Below are positions 11,519 through 20,345 of a stretch of 21,776 nt of DNA, one piece after another. A program made the translations under genes and the position numbers. The stretch's first letter is position 1, and every line of letters starts with the position of its first letter. The notes under the pieces were generated by a model. The model was not told where the DNA came from and did no database searches. It saw only the letters and a program-made list of their open reading frames with translations. Source of the stretch: Parvularia atlantis (lineage: Eukaryota > Opisthokonta > Rotosphaerida); contig CALSCO010001746.1 in the NCBI GenBank assembly GCA_943704415.1, positions 1 to 21,776 of the forward strand. Reading direction: 5' to 3'.

Positions 11519-12766
11519 ATGGACGCCGTTCTCTCGGAGCTGCGCGCGGCGCTCGCGCCGGTGCTGGCGACGCCGCCGTGGCACCCGCTGCGCAACGTGC
11601 TCGCGACGCCGCTGGACGTGGGCCGCTGGGACTGGTCGCAGCTGGACCCGCGCAACGCGCAGTGTGTGCCGCTGCCAATGCGCGCACATTCCGACAATCG
11701 CGCGCGCGCGCGCGCGCACAGCGAGTTCAAGTGGCAGTACGGCGTCACGCCCTTCTCGAACTGGGAGGTCATCGTCGCCGCGTGGATCGCCTACTTTGGC
11801 AGGTGCGACCGGCCGGCGCATCGCTCTCGCGGCTGAGGCGCGATCGGCCGACAGCATCCTGCTCATCCGCACCGGCATTGGCCTCGCGCGCCAGCCGTTC
11901 GAGCTGCGTGGCGTCGCGGCCGTGCACAACATGATCCTCGTGCTGTGGTCGCTCGCGATGTTTGTCTTTGTCGTCGTCGACGCCGCCAAGATCGCCTCGG
12001 ACCGCGGCGTCGACGCGCTCTTCTGCACGCGCAGCACGCGCGAGATGACCGGCCGCCTCTTCTTCGGCGTGTACGTCTACTACCTCTCCAAGTTCTATGA
12101 GCTGCTCGACACGGTCATCCTCGCGCTCAAGAATGTGCGTGCGCGTGAGAGCACGCACGCTGCTGCTGCTGCTGCTGCTGCCGCTGCTGCTGCTCATGCG
12201 CTCTCGCTCCCGAGCAGAAGCCGATCATCTTCCTGCACTGGTTCCACCACGCGATCGTCATTACCATGGTCTGGTCGTGGCTGCACTACGGCCTCGTGTT
12301 CTCGAGGTTTGCCGCGCACGCTGGTGGCGCACGGCGGCGCGACTCACGCGCGCACAGCTTTGGCATGGCCGCCAACACGCTCGTGCACGTGTTCATGTAC
12401 TACTTTTACTACAAGGCGGCGCTGCAGCAGGAGGTCTGGTTTAAGGTGCGCACGCGCCCGTCCGCTGTGCGCGGCTGAGCGGGGGCGCGGCGGCAGCGCT
12501 TCATCACGAGCGGCCAAATCGTGCAGTTCACCGTCTCGTTCCTGCTGCTCGTGCCCTTCTTCTACTACCACAACACGATCGGCGGTGCGCTGCGCCGCGC
12601 TGCGTGCCTGTGTGCTTACGCAAAGGGAGGCGCAGACTGCGTCGGCTTTGAGGCGCTTGTCTTCACAATGGCCTGCAACGGCCTTTTTCTGCTGCTCTTT
12701 GTGCAATTCTACGCGCGCACGTACGGCGGCGAGGGCAAGGGCAAAAAGGCCAAGAAGGACCAGTGA
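11519..12766 (+). CDS. ELO-family very-long-chain fatty acid elongase (3-ketoacyl-CoA synthase)
   Basis: Exons 11519-11661, 11722-11802, 11855-12134, 12218-12306, 12358-12445, 12497-12584 and 12636-12766 close in phase (299 aa, typical for the family). Family blocks in order: NWEVIVAAWIAYFGS, a membrane segment NMILVLWSLAMFVFVVV, then YYLSKFYELLDTVILALKNK, FLHWFHHA (the HxxHH histidine box), NTLVHVFMYYFYY, and NGLFLLLFVQFY. ELO enzymes condense malonyl-CoA with acyl-CoA, the first step of fatty-acid elongation at the ER membrane. The C-terminus ends GKKAKKDQ, with lysines at -3 and -4, a KKxx ER-retrieval signal. HWFHH with a Trp-Phe core is more like the saturated/monounsaturated class than the PUFA class (HVYHH), a weak hint. 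Intron 3 carries a TGC repeat. Confidence 0.93.
12161..12193 (+). repeat. TGC/GCT trinucleotide repeat in elongase intron 3
   Basis: About eleven TGC units with one CCG interruption fill the centre of the intron at 12135-12217. They are removed by splicing, so they do not code for a homopolymer. They sit next to a CATG-containing polypyrimidine-poor acceptor. Confidence 0.85.
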
Positions 12767-12825
12767 AGCAGTGTGTGGACGGGCTTTGTGCGGCAAAAGT
12801 CGTGAAGACTACACATGCACAACGC

Positions 12826-14241
12826 TCACAGTTCTACGACGAGGCCTTGCAGCAGCAGCTCGCCCTCAATCCAGCCGCGCAGCGGATGCTGATACACCGC
12901 GAGGGTGTCTTGCCGCGAGCCGGCGAGGCGCTCGTGAAGTTTGGCGATCGAACGCGCTGGCAGCGCACACAGTCCCACAGCATCGCTCAACGCCGCAACA
13001 GCGCGAAGCATGTCGACCGCACCGGCTAGCTGCTTGGGCTTCACGAGCGCCAGGCGCCGCGCCAAAAGCACGCCGAGATGGCTGTAGTACGAGCTGAACG
13101 GCTTGCAGGGAACACCGAGCGCCTCAATGGCGTGAGCCAGATCCGTGACGAATGCGTCGTCCGACACGAGCAGCATCTCCACTGGCGCAGGCTCCTTGTC
13201 GTCTACCGTGGGTGCCGCCAAGTCGCTCAGGTCTGCAGCCAGCGACGACGCCATCGCCGTCATCTGCACATCGGCCGCGTTCTTGTGATCCGACGACGCA
13301 AGCACGAGTCGCGCGTTGCCGTTCAGCACGCCCTTGACAAGGTCCACGCGCGCCCGCACTCGCCCCGCGTTGACCGGTGCGCAGAAGACGACGACGTGCA
13401 CGAGCTCCGGTGCGACGCCAGGCAGGCCCTTGATCTCGGCCAGCGTGCTGTCACACGAGAGCGTGTTGAGTGCGTCAAGACTGTTGTCGCCGTCGATCAG
13501 CACCAGCCGCGGCGAGCATCTCGACGCGTCTTCCGTGCCGCGCCACGCCAGCGCGTGCTCGGCCCACTCGAGCACCGCCCGCCTTGCTTGGCGAAAGTAC
13601 TTGCTGACGGCGTCCTTGGCCGAAGGTGAGACAGCCGCCACCGGCCCCGCGTGCTGCGCCGCGTCCGCTGTCGCCGCGCTCAGGACGACGCTGCGCGGGT
13701 TGGCGCGGCGCTTGAGCGTGCCGGCCCACTCGCCACGGTCCTGCCGGAAGAAGTCGTTCATAGCCGTCTCGACCATGTAGTCTCGCAGTGAAATGTTGTC
13801 CAACCACGCCAACAGTCGGCCCTTGTCGACGCTGAAGCAACGAGCAAACTCCGCTAAGGAGAAACCGTCGCGGGCTTGCGCACGACGGAACCTCGTCCGA
13901 AGGTCGTCATCCGTGTCCTCGTCGCTGGTCCTCGCGCCACTCGCACTGCCCTTCGTGCTGCCACCGCTCTCGTACGTGCTGTCGTTGTCGCCGGTGCCTG
14001 CCCCGCCGCGCTGTCGTCGCTTGGCGAACGCGTCGATCGAGCCGGCCTTGAGCAGCTCAGCGACGGCGCTCTCGCACCGCGGCGAGCGCAACGAGGCGCG
14101 GCGACGCCACGTGCAGAACGTCGACTCGGCCAGGCCCGCGTGCTGGCAGAAGTAGCGGTGCGTGAAGCCCTCGCGCGCCTGCAGCGCCACGTAGCCCGCA
14201 AGCAGCACGTTGGCGTCTGGGGCGTCCTTGACGGTAGCCAT
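12826..14241 (-). CDS. Intronless protein: tandem HTH repeats plus NYN/PIN-like nuclease domain
   Basis: A single ORF of 471 codons, with no introns, starting ATG at 14241 (context GGCC-ATG-GC). Two N-terminal helix-turn-helix units look like copies of each other: QAREGFTHRYFCQHAGLAES (from residue 21) and QARDGFSLAEFARCFSVDKG (from residue 122), each followed by a Trp-containing recognition-helix-like segment (CTWRRR; LAWLDN). A charged, Gly/Ser-rich linker separates them. Residues 245-400 look like a NYN/LabA PIN-fold ribonuclease: LVLIDGDNSLDA (Asp250, Asp252), VHVVVFCAPVN, SDHKNAADVQM (Asp324) and MLLVSDDAFVTDLAHAIEAL (Asp361/362) supply the acidic residues expected of that metal site. 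The last 70 residues are helical. Family assignment is by motif reading, so nuclease activity is inference. The 5' end faces the gene at 14496. Confidence 0.7.
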   Translation of the reverse strand: MATVKDAPDANVLLAGYVALQAREGFTHRYFCQHAGLAESTFCTWRRRASLRSPRCESAVAELLKAGSIDAFAKRRQRGGAGTGDNDSTYESGGSTKGSASGARTSDEDTDDDLRTRFRRAQARDGFSLAEFARCFSVDKGRLLAWLDNISLRDYMVETAMNDFFRQDRGEWAGTLKRRANPRSVVLSAATADAAQHAGPVAAVSPSAKDAVSKYFRQARRAVLEWAEHALAWRGTEDASRCSPRLVLIDGDNSLDALNTLSCDSTLAEIKGLPGVAPELVHVVVFCAPVNAGRVRARVDLVKGVLNGNARLVLASSDHKNAADVQMTAMASSLAADLSDLAAPTVDDKEPAPVEMLLVSDDAFVTDLAHAIEALGVPCKPFSSYYSHLGVLLARRLALVKPKQLAGAVDMLRAVAALSDAVGLCALPARSIAKLHERLAGSRQDTLAVYQHPLRGWIEGELLLQGLVVEL

Positions 14242-14313
14242 GGCCGAGTGTCACACAAACATGGCCGTGGCTGACGTGCCACGCGCGGATTGGTTGGGAA
14301 GCGCGGTTGCAAC

Positions 14314-14429
14314 ACCGTCTGCACGCGCACGGTTGCATCCGACCGTCTGCACGCGCGCGGCTACGTCACCGCACGTGCGGTGACCGTCACCGTCTGCACG
14401 CGCGCGGCTACGTCACCGTCTGCACGCGC
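14314..14429 (+). repeat. Four direct copies of a 15-bp unit
   Basis: ACCGTCTGCACGCGC occurs exactly at 14314-14328, 14342-14356, 14389-14403 and 14415-14429. Start-to-start spacings are 28, 47 and 26 bp. Copies 2 and 3 are identical over about 30 bp. Confidence 0.9.
14365..14384. repeat. Perfect 20-bp palindrome
   Basis: GTCACCGCACGTGCGGTGAC is identical to its reverse complement and has a CACGTG core. It lies between repeat copies 2 and 3, in the middle of the divergent region. Confidence 0.9.
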
Positions 14430-14495
14430 GGGGCTCCACGGTACTTAAGAACACCCGGGACGACGCTCACAACACCGCACTACTCACCCACTGGC

Positions 14496-14963
14496 ATGGC
14501 TACGCTCCGCGCCAACGCCGTCGAGGCCGCCGAGGCCGCACGCCTCTCCGCTGTCGCCGCTGCCGTGGCCGCCGAGGCCGCACGCCGCGCCGCTGTCGCC
14601 GCTGCCGCGGCCGCCGAGGCCGCACGCCGCGCCGCTGTCGCCGCTGCCGCGGCCAATCGTCTTCTCGCCGACGCCCGCGAGCGTCTGCCCGACGGCCTTC
14701 AGGCTGCAGCCGATGTGTTGCAGCGTGACATCCAGGCCCGCGAGCTGCTCGCGCGCGCACGCCACACGCAGACCCCTAAGGACGTTGCTGCTGCGGTCAA
14801 GTTCATCCGCCGCGCGTGCGCCTGGACGCAGAACGCCTACGGCGCCCGGTGCGAGGTTACCGGCTCCGCCGTCTGCAAGTTTGAGAAGGGCAAGGTCGGC
14901 GTACGCTCGGCCGTTTACGTCTGCGGCCTTCGCGACGTGAACGCGCTGCTCGCCTTCCTCTAG
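14496..14963 (+). CDS. Intronless Ala-rich protein with XRE/Cro-like helix-turn-helix
   Basis: A single 155-codon ORF with no introns, stop TAG. Residues 10-55 are an Ala-rich helix made of three tandem units (EAARRAAVAAAAAA type) encoded by 42-bp repeats; residues 55-90 continue as a charged helix, suggesting a coiled coil for oligomerisation. Residues about 99-137 read like the first helices of a lambda-repressor/XRE domain: VKFIRRACAWTQNAYGARCE, then VTGSAVCKFEKGKVGVR, with the family hallmarks R-x5-TQ, a turn, S-x-x-CKFE and KGK. This fold binds operator-like DNA. Its start codon is 254 bp from that of the divergent nuclease-like gene, and both proteins begin Met-Ala-Thr. A role as regulator of the pair is inference; the HTH call is by eye. 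Confidence 0.65.
   Translation: MATLRANAVEAAEAARLSAVAAAVAAEAARRAAVAAAAAAEAARRAAVAAAAANRLLADARERLPDGLQAAADVLQRDIQARELLARARHTQTPKDVAAAVKFIRRACAWTQNAYGARCEVTGSAVCKFEKGKVGVRSAVYVCGLRDVNALLAFL
14532..14657 (+). repeat. Three tandem 42-bp repeats in coding sequence
   Basis: Units begin GAGGCCGCACGCC at 14532, 14574 and 14616. The second and third differ only at their very end, and the first has a few substitutions. Each encodes a 14-residue Ala-rich helical turn unit, keeping the frame. Confidence 0.9.
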
Positions 14964-15120
14964 GGCGACTGGCAGCCCTGCCGACAGGCAATGCTGCTTT
15001 GCGAAGTGGCGACAGCCTGTGGTGTTGTGTCTGTGTGCAGTGTCGAAGCGGGTGTGTCCAACGCATTGTGCACAGCCACGGCCGTGCTTGCGCAGATCAC
15101 TACCATCAGCATACCGAGTG

Positions 15121-17242
15121 ATGCATCCGGCCTTCCTGCTGGCCGACCGCGCGGCCGTGCGCGCGTGGAAGGTGCCGCCGCCGATGCGCGCCGCGTGCCG
15201 CCGCTTTGCCGATGTGTCCCGCAGGAGCTCGACAACGGCTTTGACGAGTCGGTACGCCCAGGCGACGCCTGCCGCAAGTACGGCGTCGAGTTCCGCTGGA
15301 CGGTGCGCCCGCCGCCGCGCCCTCGTCCGCCGCGTGCTGAACGCGCTGCGCGGACGCGATGCACCAGGAGCTGCACAAGCGCCCGCGCGAGCTCGAGGCG
15401 ATGCGCAAGGTCGGCGACGCGCTGGCCGACGCTGCGCTCAACGAGGTCCTGCTGCTCGCTCATCCCGCATTGACGCTGGCTGACGGCGAGACGTGCGCGC
15501 GCAGCTCGAGGCGCGGCCGCAAGACGACTGCTACGAGCTGCTGACGCAGCGCGCGGGCGAGGGCAACGCCGCGATCGACGCGCTGCTGCACAGCGTCCGC
15601 ACCGTGCCGGCCTGGGTCGATTGGGAGCGCATCGCGCGCGGGCAGCGCGTGTTCCTGCGCTACATGGCCCCGGCCCAGCAGATCCTGCTCCACCTCAGCC
15701 TCGCCGGCGGCTTTGGCGCGCCCAAGATCAACAAGGTGCTCACGTCGACCGGGTACCTCGCCCAAAACCTCAACACGACCTTCCGGCGCCTGATCGAGAC
15801 CTCGCAGATGATCTGCGACTGCCTCGTGCGTGCTGCGTGCATTGTGCGCGCACACACGCGGCTCATGCGGCGCGGTCGGCGTGCGGCAGGGCGAGGGCAG
15901 CCTCACGCCCGAGACCGGCCGCGGCTGGCTCTCGTGCGTGCGCGTGCGCTTCCTGCACGCCAAAGTGCGCCAGCGCCTCGTGCGTTCGTGCCGCTGGGAT
16001 TTCGACACGTACGGCACGCCGATCAACCAGGAGGACATGGCCGCGACGCAGGTCTCGTTCCAGTACAACATAATCTTTGGCTGCGAGATCTTTGGCACGC
16101 CGATGACCGAGCAGGTGCGCCGCGTGGGGCTGTTGTGGCGGCGGCTCACGCTCGGGCGTACGCGCACACGCACAGGAGAAGGAGGACTACACGCACCTGT
16201 GGCGGTACATCGGGTACCTGATTGGCGTGGAGGACGCGTACAACGTGTGCGCGTCGTGCGAGCTCTCAAAGGCGTACCTTGAGTCGTGCGTGATGTGCAT
16301 GTTTGCCTGTGCTATAGCTGACACCCCTGCTTCACAGCATCCTCGTGCATCTGATCCACCCCGGTGCGCACGACTCGCGCACTGCGTCACTGGTCTGACG
16401 ACGTACGCGCGCGCCGGCAGACGAGGGCAGCCAGTACCTGTCGCAGCACGTGCTCAAGGCCGTCGCGCTGCGCCACCCGATGTTCTGGACGTACGAGACG
16501 CACGCGCAGCTCACGCGCATTCTTGTCGGTACGTGCGCGACGGTGCGCCGAAGTGACGCTCATCAGATGCACAAGGCGACGTCATGGCTGTCAAGCTCAA
16601 CCTGCCGCCGTCGTCGCTGCCGCTGGACGTGTTCCACCGCTTCTGCTTCCAGATCGTGCGTGTCTGCGCGCGCGGGCGCGCGCGCCATGGCCGCGTGCTG
16701 ACCGCGGCCCCGGGGGGCAGATGCGCGCATACATCGCGCTCTCGCGCGCGCCCGTCGTTGGTGAGGTCATCCTGCAGAAGAACCTCGATATCCTCAAGGC
16801 GCTCCTCGCCAAGCTGCTCGCCGACGACCCCGCGCGCTTCACGCTGCTGCGTGCGTGCGCCTGCGCCTGCGCGGGCGGGCCTGCGAGCGCTGACGGTCAA
16901 CGTACAGACACGCCCTCGAACGAGAACCTCGCGATCAAGTACACGCCCGACATGGCCGCCGCGCAGCGCCCGCACAGCGAGCTCCCGCTCATCTTTGCCA
17001 CGGTGCGCCATCGCCTGCGCCACCGCCTGCGCCACCGCGTGAGATGTGGCCTCACCGCGTGCGCGTGCGAGCAGATCCAGTGGTTCATGAGCAAGCTCGG
17101 CGTGCTCCTCGCGATGCTGCTCGGCCTCTTCACCGCGCCCGTCGACAAGGCCAGCCGCCAGCGCAGCGCCTACGCCGCCCGCGTCGGCAGTGACAAGGCC
17201 CGCAGCGAGCTCGGCGACAAGGTCAGCGCCAAGGCGGCGTGA
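15121..17242 (+). CDS. MpaB/latex-clearing-protein-type oxygenase (PF09995-like)
   Basis: Twelve exons close in phase (488 aa): 15121-15171, 15225-15302, 15368-15445, 15505-15825, 15890-16114, 16176-16282, 16338-16363, 16421-16528, 16576-16655, 16721-16850, 16908-17002 and 17075-17242. The domain fills the protein: WVDWERIARGQRVFLRYMAP, LSLAGGFGAPKINKVLTSTG, TTFRRLIETSQM, VRVRFLHAKVRQRL, DTYGTPINQEDMAATQVSF, and HLWRYIGYLIGVEDAYNV. The family includes bacterial rubber oxygenase Lcp, a b-type haem enzyme whose iron ligand is the His of the RxxHxxxR segment (His199 here) near conserved Arg and Thr (Arg164, Thr168), and the fungal ER-bound MpaB' that cleaves an isoprenoid side chain. It probably binds haem and attacks a polyprenyl or other hydrophobic substrate; the true substrate is unknown. 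Late hydrophobic segments (GVLLAMLLGLF) may anchor it. Exon 7 is only 26 nt, and the donor before it (16283) is the least certain. Confidence 0.85.
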
Positions 17243-17568: not shown

Positions 17569-20279
17569 TCAAATGGGCACATGCAGCCCGACCTCGACCG
17601 TGCGCGTCAGCGGCACGGCAAAGATCGACGCGATCGGGCGCGAGACGAGCAGCTCGAGGTTGAACACGAGCACGACGAGCCACTTGAGCGCGCTCGCGAG
17701 CCCGTGCACGCGCTCGGCGGCCACGGCCGTGTCGCGCCCCAGCACAAACGTCGCGTCGGCCGCCGTGACTACGGCCTCATCGCTGGCGTCGGCGAGCTCG
17801 GGCGGGACGAGGCCGAGCTGGCGTAGCACGCCGGCGGCGATCCACGTCGCCTTGGGCGGGTGCTGTGTCGCCAGCGTGGTGAGCGAAACGCTTGGCCCGC
17901 AGCGAGTACGCGCACACCTCAATGTAGCCGTAATTGACCGTCACGCGAAACACGCCCGCGCACAGCGGCACGGGGCGGACGCGCAGCGGCCAGGCGACGC
18001 GCGGGACGTTGACCGAGAGCACGGTCACGAGCACGAGCAGCTCGGGCCGCACAGGAAAGCGCCGCAGCAGGTGCGCGTAGGCAGCAGGCACGGCCTCGGA
18101 CGCCGACGCCAAGCAGAAGACGATCGAGCCGACGACGATGCTGAGCGGGCGCTCGAGCTCGACGGGCGTGCACGTGCTGAGCGCGGCTGTGTCGGCGGGC
18201 GACATGGCCGCCTGCTGCCGGAGCATGCGCAGCCGGCACCAGCGCCAGATGAGCATGAGCGCGGCGAGCACCGCGGCCAGCGCGAGGGAGAACCACGCGC
18301 CGCTGAGGAACTGCGCAGGCGAGCGGCTCAACGATGAGCAGCACGCAGCAGTCGCGGCACACCTTGACGGCCGTAGCCGAGAGGAACGCGAGGTCGACGA
18401 CGAGGTAAAAGACCAGGAACAGCAGCGCGAGCAGCACGCTCCGGTTGAACACGACGACGATCGCGAGGGCGTAGAACAGCGTCGTGATGACAAAGACCGA
18501 CGTCACGGCGATGCCGTACGCGGCCGTGAGGCTCTCGCTGTGCACGCTACGTGAGCGGGGCCATGCACACGGGTACGGCCACGCACGAGTTTTGCGCGAC
18601 GGCGACGACGGCGATGGAGCCGATCATGAGCGCGTAGTTGACCTCGGGGATGTAGACCTGTTGCCAGCACACGCGCGCGCGTCAGCCCTCGCGACAGCAG
18701 TGCGCCAACGCACCTGGCCAAAGTGCGTCTTGTCCGTGTGGCGCAGCGTGAAGCGTGGCAGAAAATGCAGCTTCATGGCCTGCGACGCGTGCAGCGGTGA
18801 GCCGCGGCGCCTCGCGACCGGGGCTGGCGCACGGCGTTGACGAGCGAGAAGCTGGCCGAGATGAGCGCCTGCGACGCGATGATCGAGGCGAGCGTGGCGA
18901 GGACGAGCATCGGGTAGAACGACCACCACGGGAGCGAGCGGAAGAACGTGTTGCTGATGACGGTCGTGCCGTACGCGTCGGCCGGCACGGAGCCCGCGGG
19001 GTCCCAGCCGGCGCGCTCGAGGTCGGCGCGGTTGACGATCAGCGCCGCGGCCTGGCCGAGATATGTGAACAGGAGCGCGGGCGTGACGAGGACGAGCGCG
19101 CTGAGCCGGATTGCAGCGGCCGAGAAGTGCCCGAGGTCGGCGTAGAGCGCCTCGCTGCCGGTGACGACGAGGACGATTGAGCCGAGCGCCTCCCAGCCTT
19201 TTGCGCGACGCGCATGAGCACAGCACGCACGCAATGAGCACACACACACACACACACCTTGCACGCCGTTGCGCAGGAAGAAGGCAAACATGTAGTGCGG
19301 CGAGAACGCGCGGAAGACCTGCGGCGCGCGCGCGACGTTGCCTGCGCCGATGGCGAGGAGGGCGAGGAACCAGAGGAGGATGACGGGCGAGAACAGGAAG
19401 GCGACGCGCGCCGTGCCAAACTGCTGCGCCACGAACAGCACGACGAGGATCGCGATGGCGATGGCCACGACCGCGCCCTGCGGCAGGCCCGGCGCCGCGA
19501 CCTGCACGCCGCCGACGGCCGACAGCACCGAGATGGCCGGCGTGAGCACGCCGTCGCTCAGCACCATCGCCGTGCCCAGCGCCGACAGCACCGCGAGCGC
19601 GCCGTTGAGCCGGGCAAAGAGCGCGGGCGGGCGGCGACGCAGCCGGTGGTGCAGCCCGCGCGAGACGAGCGCGTAGATCGCGAAGGTGCCGCCCTCGCCG
19701 TGGTCATCGGCCATCAGCACGAGCACCTGCGGCCGTGCGGCACGTTTGGCCCTTCGTGAAGGCGCAGCAGCAGCAGCAGCACCCGCGACGCACCACGTAC
19801 TTGAGCACGAAGACCAACAGCAGCGTCCAGATCATCACCGACAGGCTCCCGATCACGTCGGCCTCGTCCGGCGGCGCGCTGCCCGAGCCAAACAGCGCCG
19901 TGAACGCGTACAGCGGCGACGTCCCGATGTCACCGTCTGCACGCCGCGCGTCACGTCCACGTCAGGCCGTCCGCACTCAGCACGACCACGACCGCGACGC
20001 ACAGATGATCCCGATCGACGCGTACGCGAGCAGCACCGTCCCCGTCCACGTCTGCGCGCGCCCGCGGCTCTCGTCCGCGCCGTCCTCGCCCGCGGCAGGC
20101 GCCGGCGCGACGGCCGCCGGGGCCATCGACGCGCGACGCGCGACGCGGATGGGAACCACGTCGACCGGCGCGCTCAGCTCGTCCTGCGCCGCCACGCGCG
20201 CCCGCCGCCCGCCCGCCGGCGCATCGTTGAGGCGGAGGACGTGCGCCGGCCAGGCGACGGCCGGGGCCACGGCTCCCAT
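17569..20279 (-). CDS. KUP/HAK-family potassium transporter
   Basis: Nine minus-strand exons close in phase (750 aa): 20279-20003, 19936-19794, 19726-19258, 19197-18833, 18779-18714, 18657-18587, 18537-18363, 18310-17918 and 17862-17569. After an N-terminal cytosolic region of about 80 residues come the family hallmarks: YGDIGTSPLYAFTALFGSGS (the K+ filter region), VLMADDHGEGGTFAIYALVS, VLSDGVLTPAISVLSAVGGV, VVTGSEALYADLGHFSAAAI, ASQALISASFSLVNAAMKL, FGQVYIPEVNYALMIGS, and ESLTAAYGIAVTSVFVITT. About 12 transmembrane helices are expected. The C-terminal cytosolic part ends RTVEVGLHVPI, as in other KUPs. These proteins import K+ at the plasma membrane, usually as H+ symporters, at low external K+. 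Length is between bacterial Kup (about 620) and fungal/plant HAK (about 780). The gene sits 66 bp downstream of the LRR gene stop, on the same strand. Confidence 0.95.
19239..19257. repeat. CA/GT microsatellite at an intron donor of the KUP gene
   Basis: Nineteen bases of alternating CA on the plus strand lie inside the intron at 19198-19257. Read on the transcribed strand they form GTGTGT..., so several in-register GT donors follow the exon end directly. Confidence 0.9.
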
Positions 20280-20345
20280 CGGCAGCGTGCGGAGTGCGCG
20301 CTGTGCGCCGCGGACTGTCGAACTGGTACCATCGAGAGACTGCAG

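What the first reader, a model, noticed from the sequence alone, without database searches (positions are those of the whole stretch)
12826..14963. Intronless divergent pair: HTH-NYN nuclease-like gene and XRE-like HTH gene
Seen: two single-exon genes lie head to head, 254 bp apart, while every confidently assigned neighbour averages about one intron per 150-300 coding bases. Both begin Met-Ala-Thr and both carry helix-turn-helix segments. One has a PIN/NYN-like domain with acidic motifs at Asp250/Asp252, Asp324 and Asp361/362. Known: XRE regulators paired with PIN/NYN-type RNases are typical of prokaryotic self-regulated modules, and NYN ribonucleases degrade RNA. Inference: the pair could be a horizontally gained module, kept by selection or self-maintaining, with the HTH proteins binding the shared repeats. 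I know of no described eukaryotic system of this layout.
Basis: partly seen in the sequence, partly recalled or inferred. Interest (0 to 1): 0.85.

Follow-up and report, generated by a model that had tools for sequence, protein, structure and literature searches.

The report
Intronless divergent HTH–PIN and XRE genes
Two intron-free genes sit back to back in an intron-rich protist-like genome, one apparently joining two DNA-binding segments to a PIN/NYN nuclease-like region and the other a bacterial-style DNA-binding protein, with what looks like a shared switch between them; they may be borrowed, but no relatives were found and no function has been shown.

Summary
P1 (12826-14241, minus, 471 aa) and P2 (14496-14963, plus, 155 aa) are single open frames, head to head, 254 bp apart, among intron-rich eukaryotic genes. 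P1 has an N-terminal helix-turn-helix (best E 1.4e-4), a diverged copy of it, then a region that fits a bacterial PIN7 profile better than 600 of 600 controls, though with an HHalign probability of only 28%. P2 has an XRE-type HTH (best E 8e-5). All family scores are below curated cut-offs. GC3 is 0.82 and 0.81, below 12 of 12 Pfam-matched host stretches (0.855-1.0), a modest gap. The spacer holds four of the genome's six copies of a 15-mer and an exact 20-bp palindrome found once. No relatives were found. Structure predictions were unusable. Long single-exon frames also occur elsewhere in the host. Best reading: a small, possibly foreign regulator plus nuclease-like locus with an operator-like control region; the mechanism is inferred. 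A toxin-antitoxin reading is not supported.

The parts
12826..14241 (-). P1: single-exon gene, 471 aa: HTH - HTH copy - PIN/NYN-like region - helical tail
   Evidence: open frame, coding codon pattern
14044..14211 (-). P1 first HTH (about residues 11-66)
   Evidence: IS66 TnpA model E 1.4e-4; HTH_Tnp_1 E 0.0079 whole protein, 0.0016 fragment; all below curated cut-off
13741..13920 (-). P1 second HTH-like segment (about residues 108-167), diverged copy of the first
   Evidence: local score 50 against shuffle mean 23.7; 2 of 5000 shuffles as good; no Pfam match of its own
13090..13506 (-). P1 PIN/NYN-like region (residues 246-384; D250, D252, D324, D361/D362)
   Evidence: hhalign to a 34-sequence PIN7 profile over residues 271-384: score 28.0, P 6e-4, probability 28%; best of 300 shuffles 23.9, best of 300 other frames 19.7; motif order in 7 of 100000 shuffles; residue letters
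14496..14963 (+). P2: single-exon gene, 155 aa: Ala-rich repeats, then XRE-type HTH
   Evidence: open frame; repeat family D1
14769..14912 (+). P2 XRE-type HTH (about residues 92-139)
   Evidence: TIGR03830 E 8.2e-5 and two HipB models E 0.0075-0.0076; HTH_31 E 0.0016 on the fragment; all below cut-off; whole-length P2 gave no HTH in Pfam; sole TIGR03830 match reported in the genome, E 0.0033
14314..14444 (.). four direct repeats (starts 14314, 14342, 14389, 14415) in the shared spacer
   Evidence: 15-mer ACCGTCTGCACGCGC: 6 places in 16.25 Mb, 4 here; reversed control 2
14365..14384 (.). exact 20-bp palindrome between the two identical repeats; candidate operator
   Evidence: one of 4 exact palindromes of 20 bp or more in 206,679 sampled bases, the other 3 repetitive and CG-rich; one exact place in the genome

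Best explanation
The two genes form one small locus, probably gained from a foreign source (bacterium, plasmid-like element or virus) and now part of a eukaryotic chromosome. P1 is a DNA-binding protein with a PIN/NYN nuclease-like domain; P2 is an XRE-type DNA-binding protein. P2, perhaps with the paired HTHs of P1, binds the palindrome and repeats in the 254-bp spacer and so controls both genes, which are read in opposite directions. P1 would cut RNA when expressed. Shown: layout, HTH matches, the PIN7-like profile match, spacer repeats and palindrome, lower GC3. Inferred: foreign origin, binding, shared regulation, nuclease activity.
For: PIN7-like region above 600 of 600 controls with the acidic motif in order; duplicated HTH in P1; XRE match in P2; both genes have GC3 0.82/0.81, below 12 of 12 Pfam-matched host stretches (0.855-1.0, pooled 0.90); the host's MBF1-like XRE protein appears to carry an intron, inferred from a frame change, while P2 does not; repeats and palindrome are concentrated in the spacer.
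Against: No donor: no relative of P1 or P2 found (P2 not searched in genome contigs). Pfam, PHROGs and PDB searches show no PIN/NYN in P1, and the NYN model finds nothing in the genome, P1 included. hhalign probability is only 28% and its alignment omits the first strand with D250. An HMM from the 84 closer PIN7 sequences gave P1 1.6 bits, with 6 of 1000 shuffles above it. HTH_3 does not pick up P2. GC3 falls from 0.90 to 0.72 along P1, and some domain-bearing host frames are at 0.84-0.85 over their full length, so the codon signal is modest. AlphaFold2 without alignment gave mean pLDDT 37.9 and 39.7 and no fold match at E <= 0.001. 60 of 1422 sampled 254-bp windows also hold a 13-mer four or more times. 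The palindrome core CACGTG and the nearby TACGTCA resemble ordinary eukaryotic bHLH/bZIP sites (recalled).
Confidence: 0.35

Rival explanations
1. Two fast-evolving, lineage-specific host genes that happen to be intronless and adjacent, with an ordinary bidirectional promoter bound by host factors; P1 may be a regulatory RNase-like protein.
For: 5 of 10 tested long single-exon frames of the host carry Pfam domains; GC3 gap to host genes is modest; no flanking repeats clearly beyond chance; no foreign relatives.
Against: GC3 of both genes lies below all 12 Pfam-matched host stretches; the nearest models for P2 are prokaryotic HipB/MqsA.
Confidence: 0.35
2. Remnant of an integrated virus or mobile element that carried its own HTH regulators and nuclease-like protein.
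For: Intronless; transposase-type HTH in P1; lower GC3; divergent regulator layout with an operator-like spacer; one imperfect 18-nt inverted pair (89%) lies around P2, at 14256-14273 and 15073-15090.
Against: No relatives in viral contigs or phages; exact flanking matches are 8 direct and 11 inverted bases, reached by 183 and 14 of 200 shuffles; no second copy found in the genome; no other viral gene noticed in the window by eye.
Confidence: 0.18
3. A toxin-antitoxin-like addiction pair in a eukaryotic nucleus: P1 as PIN toxin, P2 as XRE antitoxin.
For: PIN-like plus XRE combination; P2 matches antitoxin models weakly.
Against: Divergent, not an operon; P1 is much larger than usual PIN toxins (recalled) and has its own HTHs; scores below cut-offs; no PADLOC match.
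Confidence: 0.07
4. P2 is a chance open frame in GC-rich DNA; only P1 is a gene.
For: P2 is absent from the coding-like list and other frames over it are nearly open.
Against: XRE match; GC2/GC3 contrast of 0.49/0.82 in its C-terminal two thirds.
Confidence: 0.05

Closest known systems
PIN7 family (Pfam PF18475), bacterial PIN/NYN-type proteins, also on conjugative plasmids
   Same: collinear profile match over 100 columns including the KNxxD and SxD motifs
   Different: P1 has two HTH segments in front; in 4 of 4 plasmid members looked at the annotated gene starts within 13 codons of the PIN match (the other 85 loci were not checked for this); P1 does not reach any Pfam PIN model
HipB / MqsA-type XRE antitoxins
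   Same: HTH segment of P2
   Different: Ala-rich repeats in front; divergent from the nuclease-like gene; scores far below cut-offs; PDB matches to HipB not significant (E 1.4-2.2)
Bacteria-derived restriction-modification pair in a katablepharid mitochondrion (PMC8099122; abstract and section list seen)
   Same: a two-gene prokaryote-type system in a protist, proposed to act as a selfish element
   Different: mitochondrial, with known bacterial relatives and shown activity; ours lies among intron-bearing genes, is orphan and untested
MARF1/limkain-type eukaryotic NYN proteins (recalled, not compared here)
   Same: NYN domain combined with HTH-type domains
   Different: theirs are LOTUS/OST-HTH domains; the P1 HTH resembles transposase HTHs

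Membership tests
PIN7 (PF18475) / NYN | profile match at the family's curated cut-off | tested here: not met
   no PIN or NYN family listed for P1; NYN model finds nothing in the genome
PIN7 (PF18475) / NYN | remote homology by profile comparison | tested here: inconclusive
   above 600 of 600 controls, P 6e-4, but probability 28%; weak with a tighter HMM
PIN7 (PF18475) / NYN | acidic active-site residues in order | tested here: met
   D250, D252, D324, D361, D362; order found in 7 of 100000 shuffles; pattern written after seeing the sequence
PIN7 (PF18475) / NYN | PIN fold | tested here: inconclusive
   mean pLDDT 37.9 and 39.7; no fold match at E <= 0.001
PIN/NYN | metal-dependent RNase activity | not testable with these tools
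   needs purified protein
XRE HTH | HTH profile match at cut-off | tested here: not met
   E 8.2e-5 to 0.0076 but below cut-offs; not found by HTH_3
type II toxin-antitoxin | both genes in one operon | tested here: not met
   divergent
type II toxin-antitoxin | toxicity and its neutralisation | not testable with these tools
   needs expression
DNA transposon | terminal inverted repeats, target duplication, several copies | tested here: not met
   exact flanking matches of 8 direct and 11 inverted bases, reached by 183 and 14 of 200 shuffles; no second copy found; an imperfect 18-nt inverted pair around P2 remains

The most novel reading that the evidence does not exclude
A eukaryotic chromosomal locus in which a prokaryote-type XRE regulator and a two-HTH PIN/NYN nuclease-like protein are read divergently from a shared operator and regulate each other: a bacterial-style switch working in a eukaryotic nucleus.
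Probability: 0.14. Interest if true: 0.8.

Novelty: new variant of a known kind. Interest (0 to 1): 0.4.

Why it matters
If the pair is a working borrowed switch, it would show that an operator-controlled regulator and nuclease module of prokaryotic style can persist in a eukaryotic nucleus, in a form small enough to test directly. If it is only a pair of orphan host genes, the arrangement HTH-HTH-PIN would still be one that I did not meet in the searches made here.

Tried and rejected
Chance open frames: rejected for P1 on codon pattern and domain evidence; kept as a low rival for P2. Pogo-type transposase (two HTHs, then a DDE domain): considered from memory only; set aside because the low-confidence secondary structure alternates strands and helices and the motifs fit PIN; not tested by a search for DDE models beyond the Pfam scans. 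One family for all three HTHs: dropped, since P2 against the two P1 segments is not significant (1041 and 1782 of 5000 shuffles as good), and the alignment misaligned P2. Dispersed targets of the palindrome: with up to 3 mismatches 4 places per strand, itself included, against 5 for the reversed control. Own-genome PIN7 search: nothing, but no control rang either. Host identification by 18S: no answer from the tool; a literature search on ancyromonads led nowhere. PHROGs gave no convincing match; P2 has two weak, unconvincing matches elsewhere in the genome (E 0.22 and 0.35). Consensus bacterial promoters: 0 found in 12700-15150.

Full report
What is there. P1 (12826-14241, minus) and P2 (14496-14963, plus) lie head to head with 254 bp between them. 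The neighbours carry introns by eye: an elongase-like gene (about 11520-12766) and an MpaB-like oxygenase (about 15121-17242), both named from memory on their translations, and a potassium transporter (a frame at 17777-18256 matches K_trans_C, E 7.8e-12).

Are they genes. In 70% GC DNA long frames arise by chance; four frames of 371 to 535 aa in this window lack the coding pattern over their length. P1 has it throughout and is the third longest of 61 coding-like frames among 302. P2 is not among the 61; it is supported by its HTH and by the codon pattern of its C-terminal two thirds.

Domains of P1. The first HTH matches an IS66 TnpA model at E 1.4e-4 and HTH_Tnp_1 at 0.0079, or 0.0016 for the fragment, all below cut-off. 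The second segment looks like its diverged copy (score 50 against a shuffle mean of 23.7; 2 of 5000 shuffles as good). For the C-terminal region, Pfam, PHROGs, NCBIfam and PDB searches gave no PIN or NYN match. I took 80 bacterial and 5 viral loci and 4 plasmid loci, of which 84 of the first 85 passed a length filter, and thinned the set to 34. hhalign of P1 residues 233-432 gave score 28.0, P 6e-4, probability 28.1%, 100 aligned columns (residues 271-384, so without the first strand). The best of 300 shuffles scored 23.9, and the best of 300 other stop-to-stop frames, many of them not real genes, 19.7. An earlier HMM of the 84 closer sequences gave P1 1.6 bits, with 6 of 1000 shuffles above it. 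The acidic motif order occurs in 7 of 100000 shuffles; of 1218 frames from fetched loci 4 had it, all in loci that hold P1; the pattern was written after seeing the sequence. Two structure predictions without alignment were of very low confidence, and the fold search on one had no match at E <= 0.001.

Domains of P2. Ala-rich repeats of 42 bp, then an XRE-type HTH: TIGR03830 E 8.2e-5, two HipB models 0.0075-0.0076, HTH_31 0.0016 on the fragment, all below cut-off; Pfam on the whole protein shows no HTH. TIGR03830 has one reported match in the genome, P2 (E 0.0033). HTH_3 has one, not P2 but an MBF1-like gene (name recalled), whose frame changes inside the domain, which suggests an intron.

The spacer. 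Four repeats start at 14314, 14342, 14389 and 14415; two are identical over 30 nt. Their 15-mer occurs at 6 places in the genome, 4 of them here; the reversed control at 2. Between the identical pair lies an exact 20-bp palindrome, one of 4 of that length or more in 206,679 sampled bases, the other three repetitive and CG-rich; it has one exact place in the genome. Against this, 60 of 1422 sampled windows of 254 bp also hold some 13-mer four times or more.

Origin. GC3 is 0.824 for P1 and 0.813 for P2. Twelve host stretches matched by Pfam range from 0.855 to 1.0, pooled 0.90 over 1276 codons; over their full frames three of the twelve lie at 0.84-0.85. Those frames came from the coding-like list, which itself asks for high GC3: 30 of its frames were given to Pfam, of which 12 matched (5 of 10, 4 of 10, 3 of 10). 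The signal is therefore real but modest. No relative was found in the own genome, viral contigs, genome contigs (P1 only), plasmids or phages; the contig scans use short peptide patterns and reach close relatives only. Flanking repeats are not clearly beyond chance, apart from one imperfect 18-nt inverted pair around P2. Long single-exon frames with Pfam domains exist elsewhere (AAA 682 aa, zf-C3Hc3H 420, B-box 412, NHL 298, CitMHS 250); whether they are whole genes was not tested.

Literature. Searches of the held library for PF18475 (0 papers), NYN domain with protist (7), toxin-antitoxin with eukaryotic nuclear genome (6), PIN domain with divergently transcribed, helix-turn-helix and protist (0), and related terms (3, 2, 10 of 17 listed) showed no title or abstract start describing such a locus. 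Only listings were seen, and for PMC8099122 the abstract and section list.

Judgement. Foreign origin and shared control are plausible; an addiction function is not supported.

Noticed in passing
L025 (G000:C530:1-10000): AT-rich (30% GC) contig with frames that look like mitochondrial rps3, nad6 and ccmC (names recalled from the translations); a mitochondrial ccmC would narrow down the host.
   Followed up: no
L011 (G000:C110:1-5000): The first half of this sampled stretch reads N; left as it is.
   Followed up: no
L015 (G000:C216 about 20190-20309): MBF1-like XRE protein of the host whose frame changes inside the domain, suggesting an intron; a contrast to intronless P2.
   Followed up: partly
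14242-14495: The spacer also holds CACGTG and TACGTCA, which resemble common eukaryotic bHLH/bZIP sites (recalled); host factors might be what binds there.
   Followed up: no
14256-14273 and 15073-15090: Imperfect 18-nt inverted pair (89%) around P2, which may be chance.
   Followed up: partly
14516-14654: 42-bp repeats in P2 encode Ala-rich, probably helical repeats of 14 residues.
   Followed up: no
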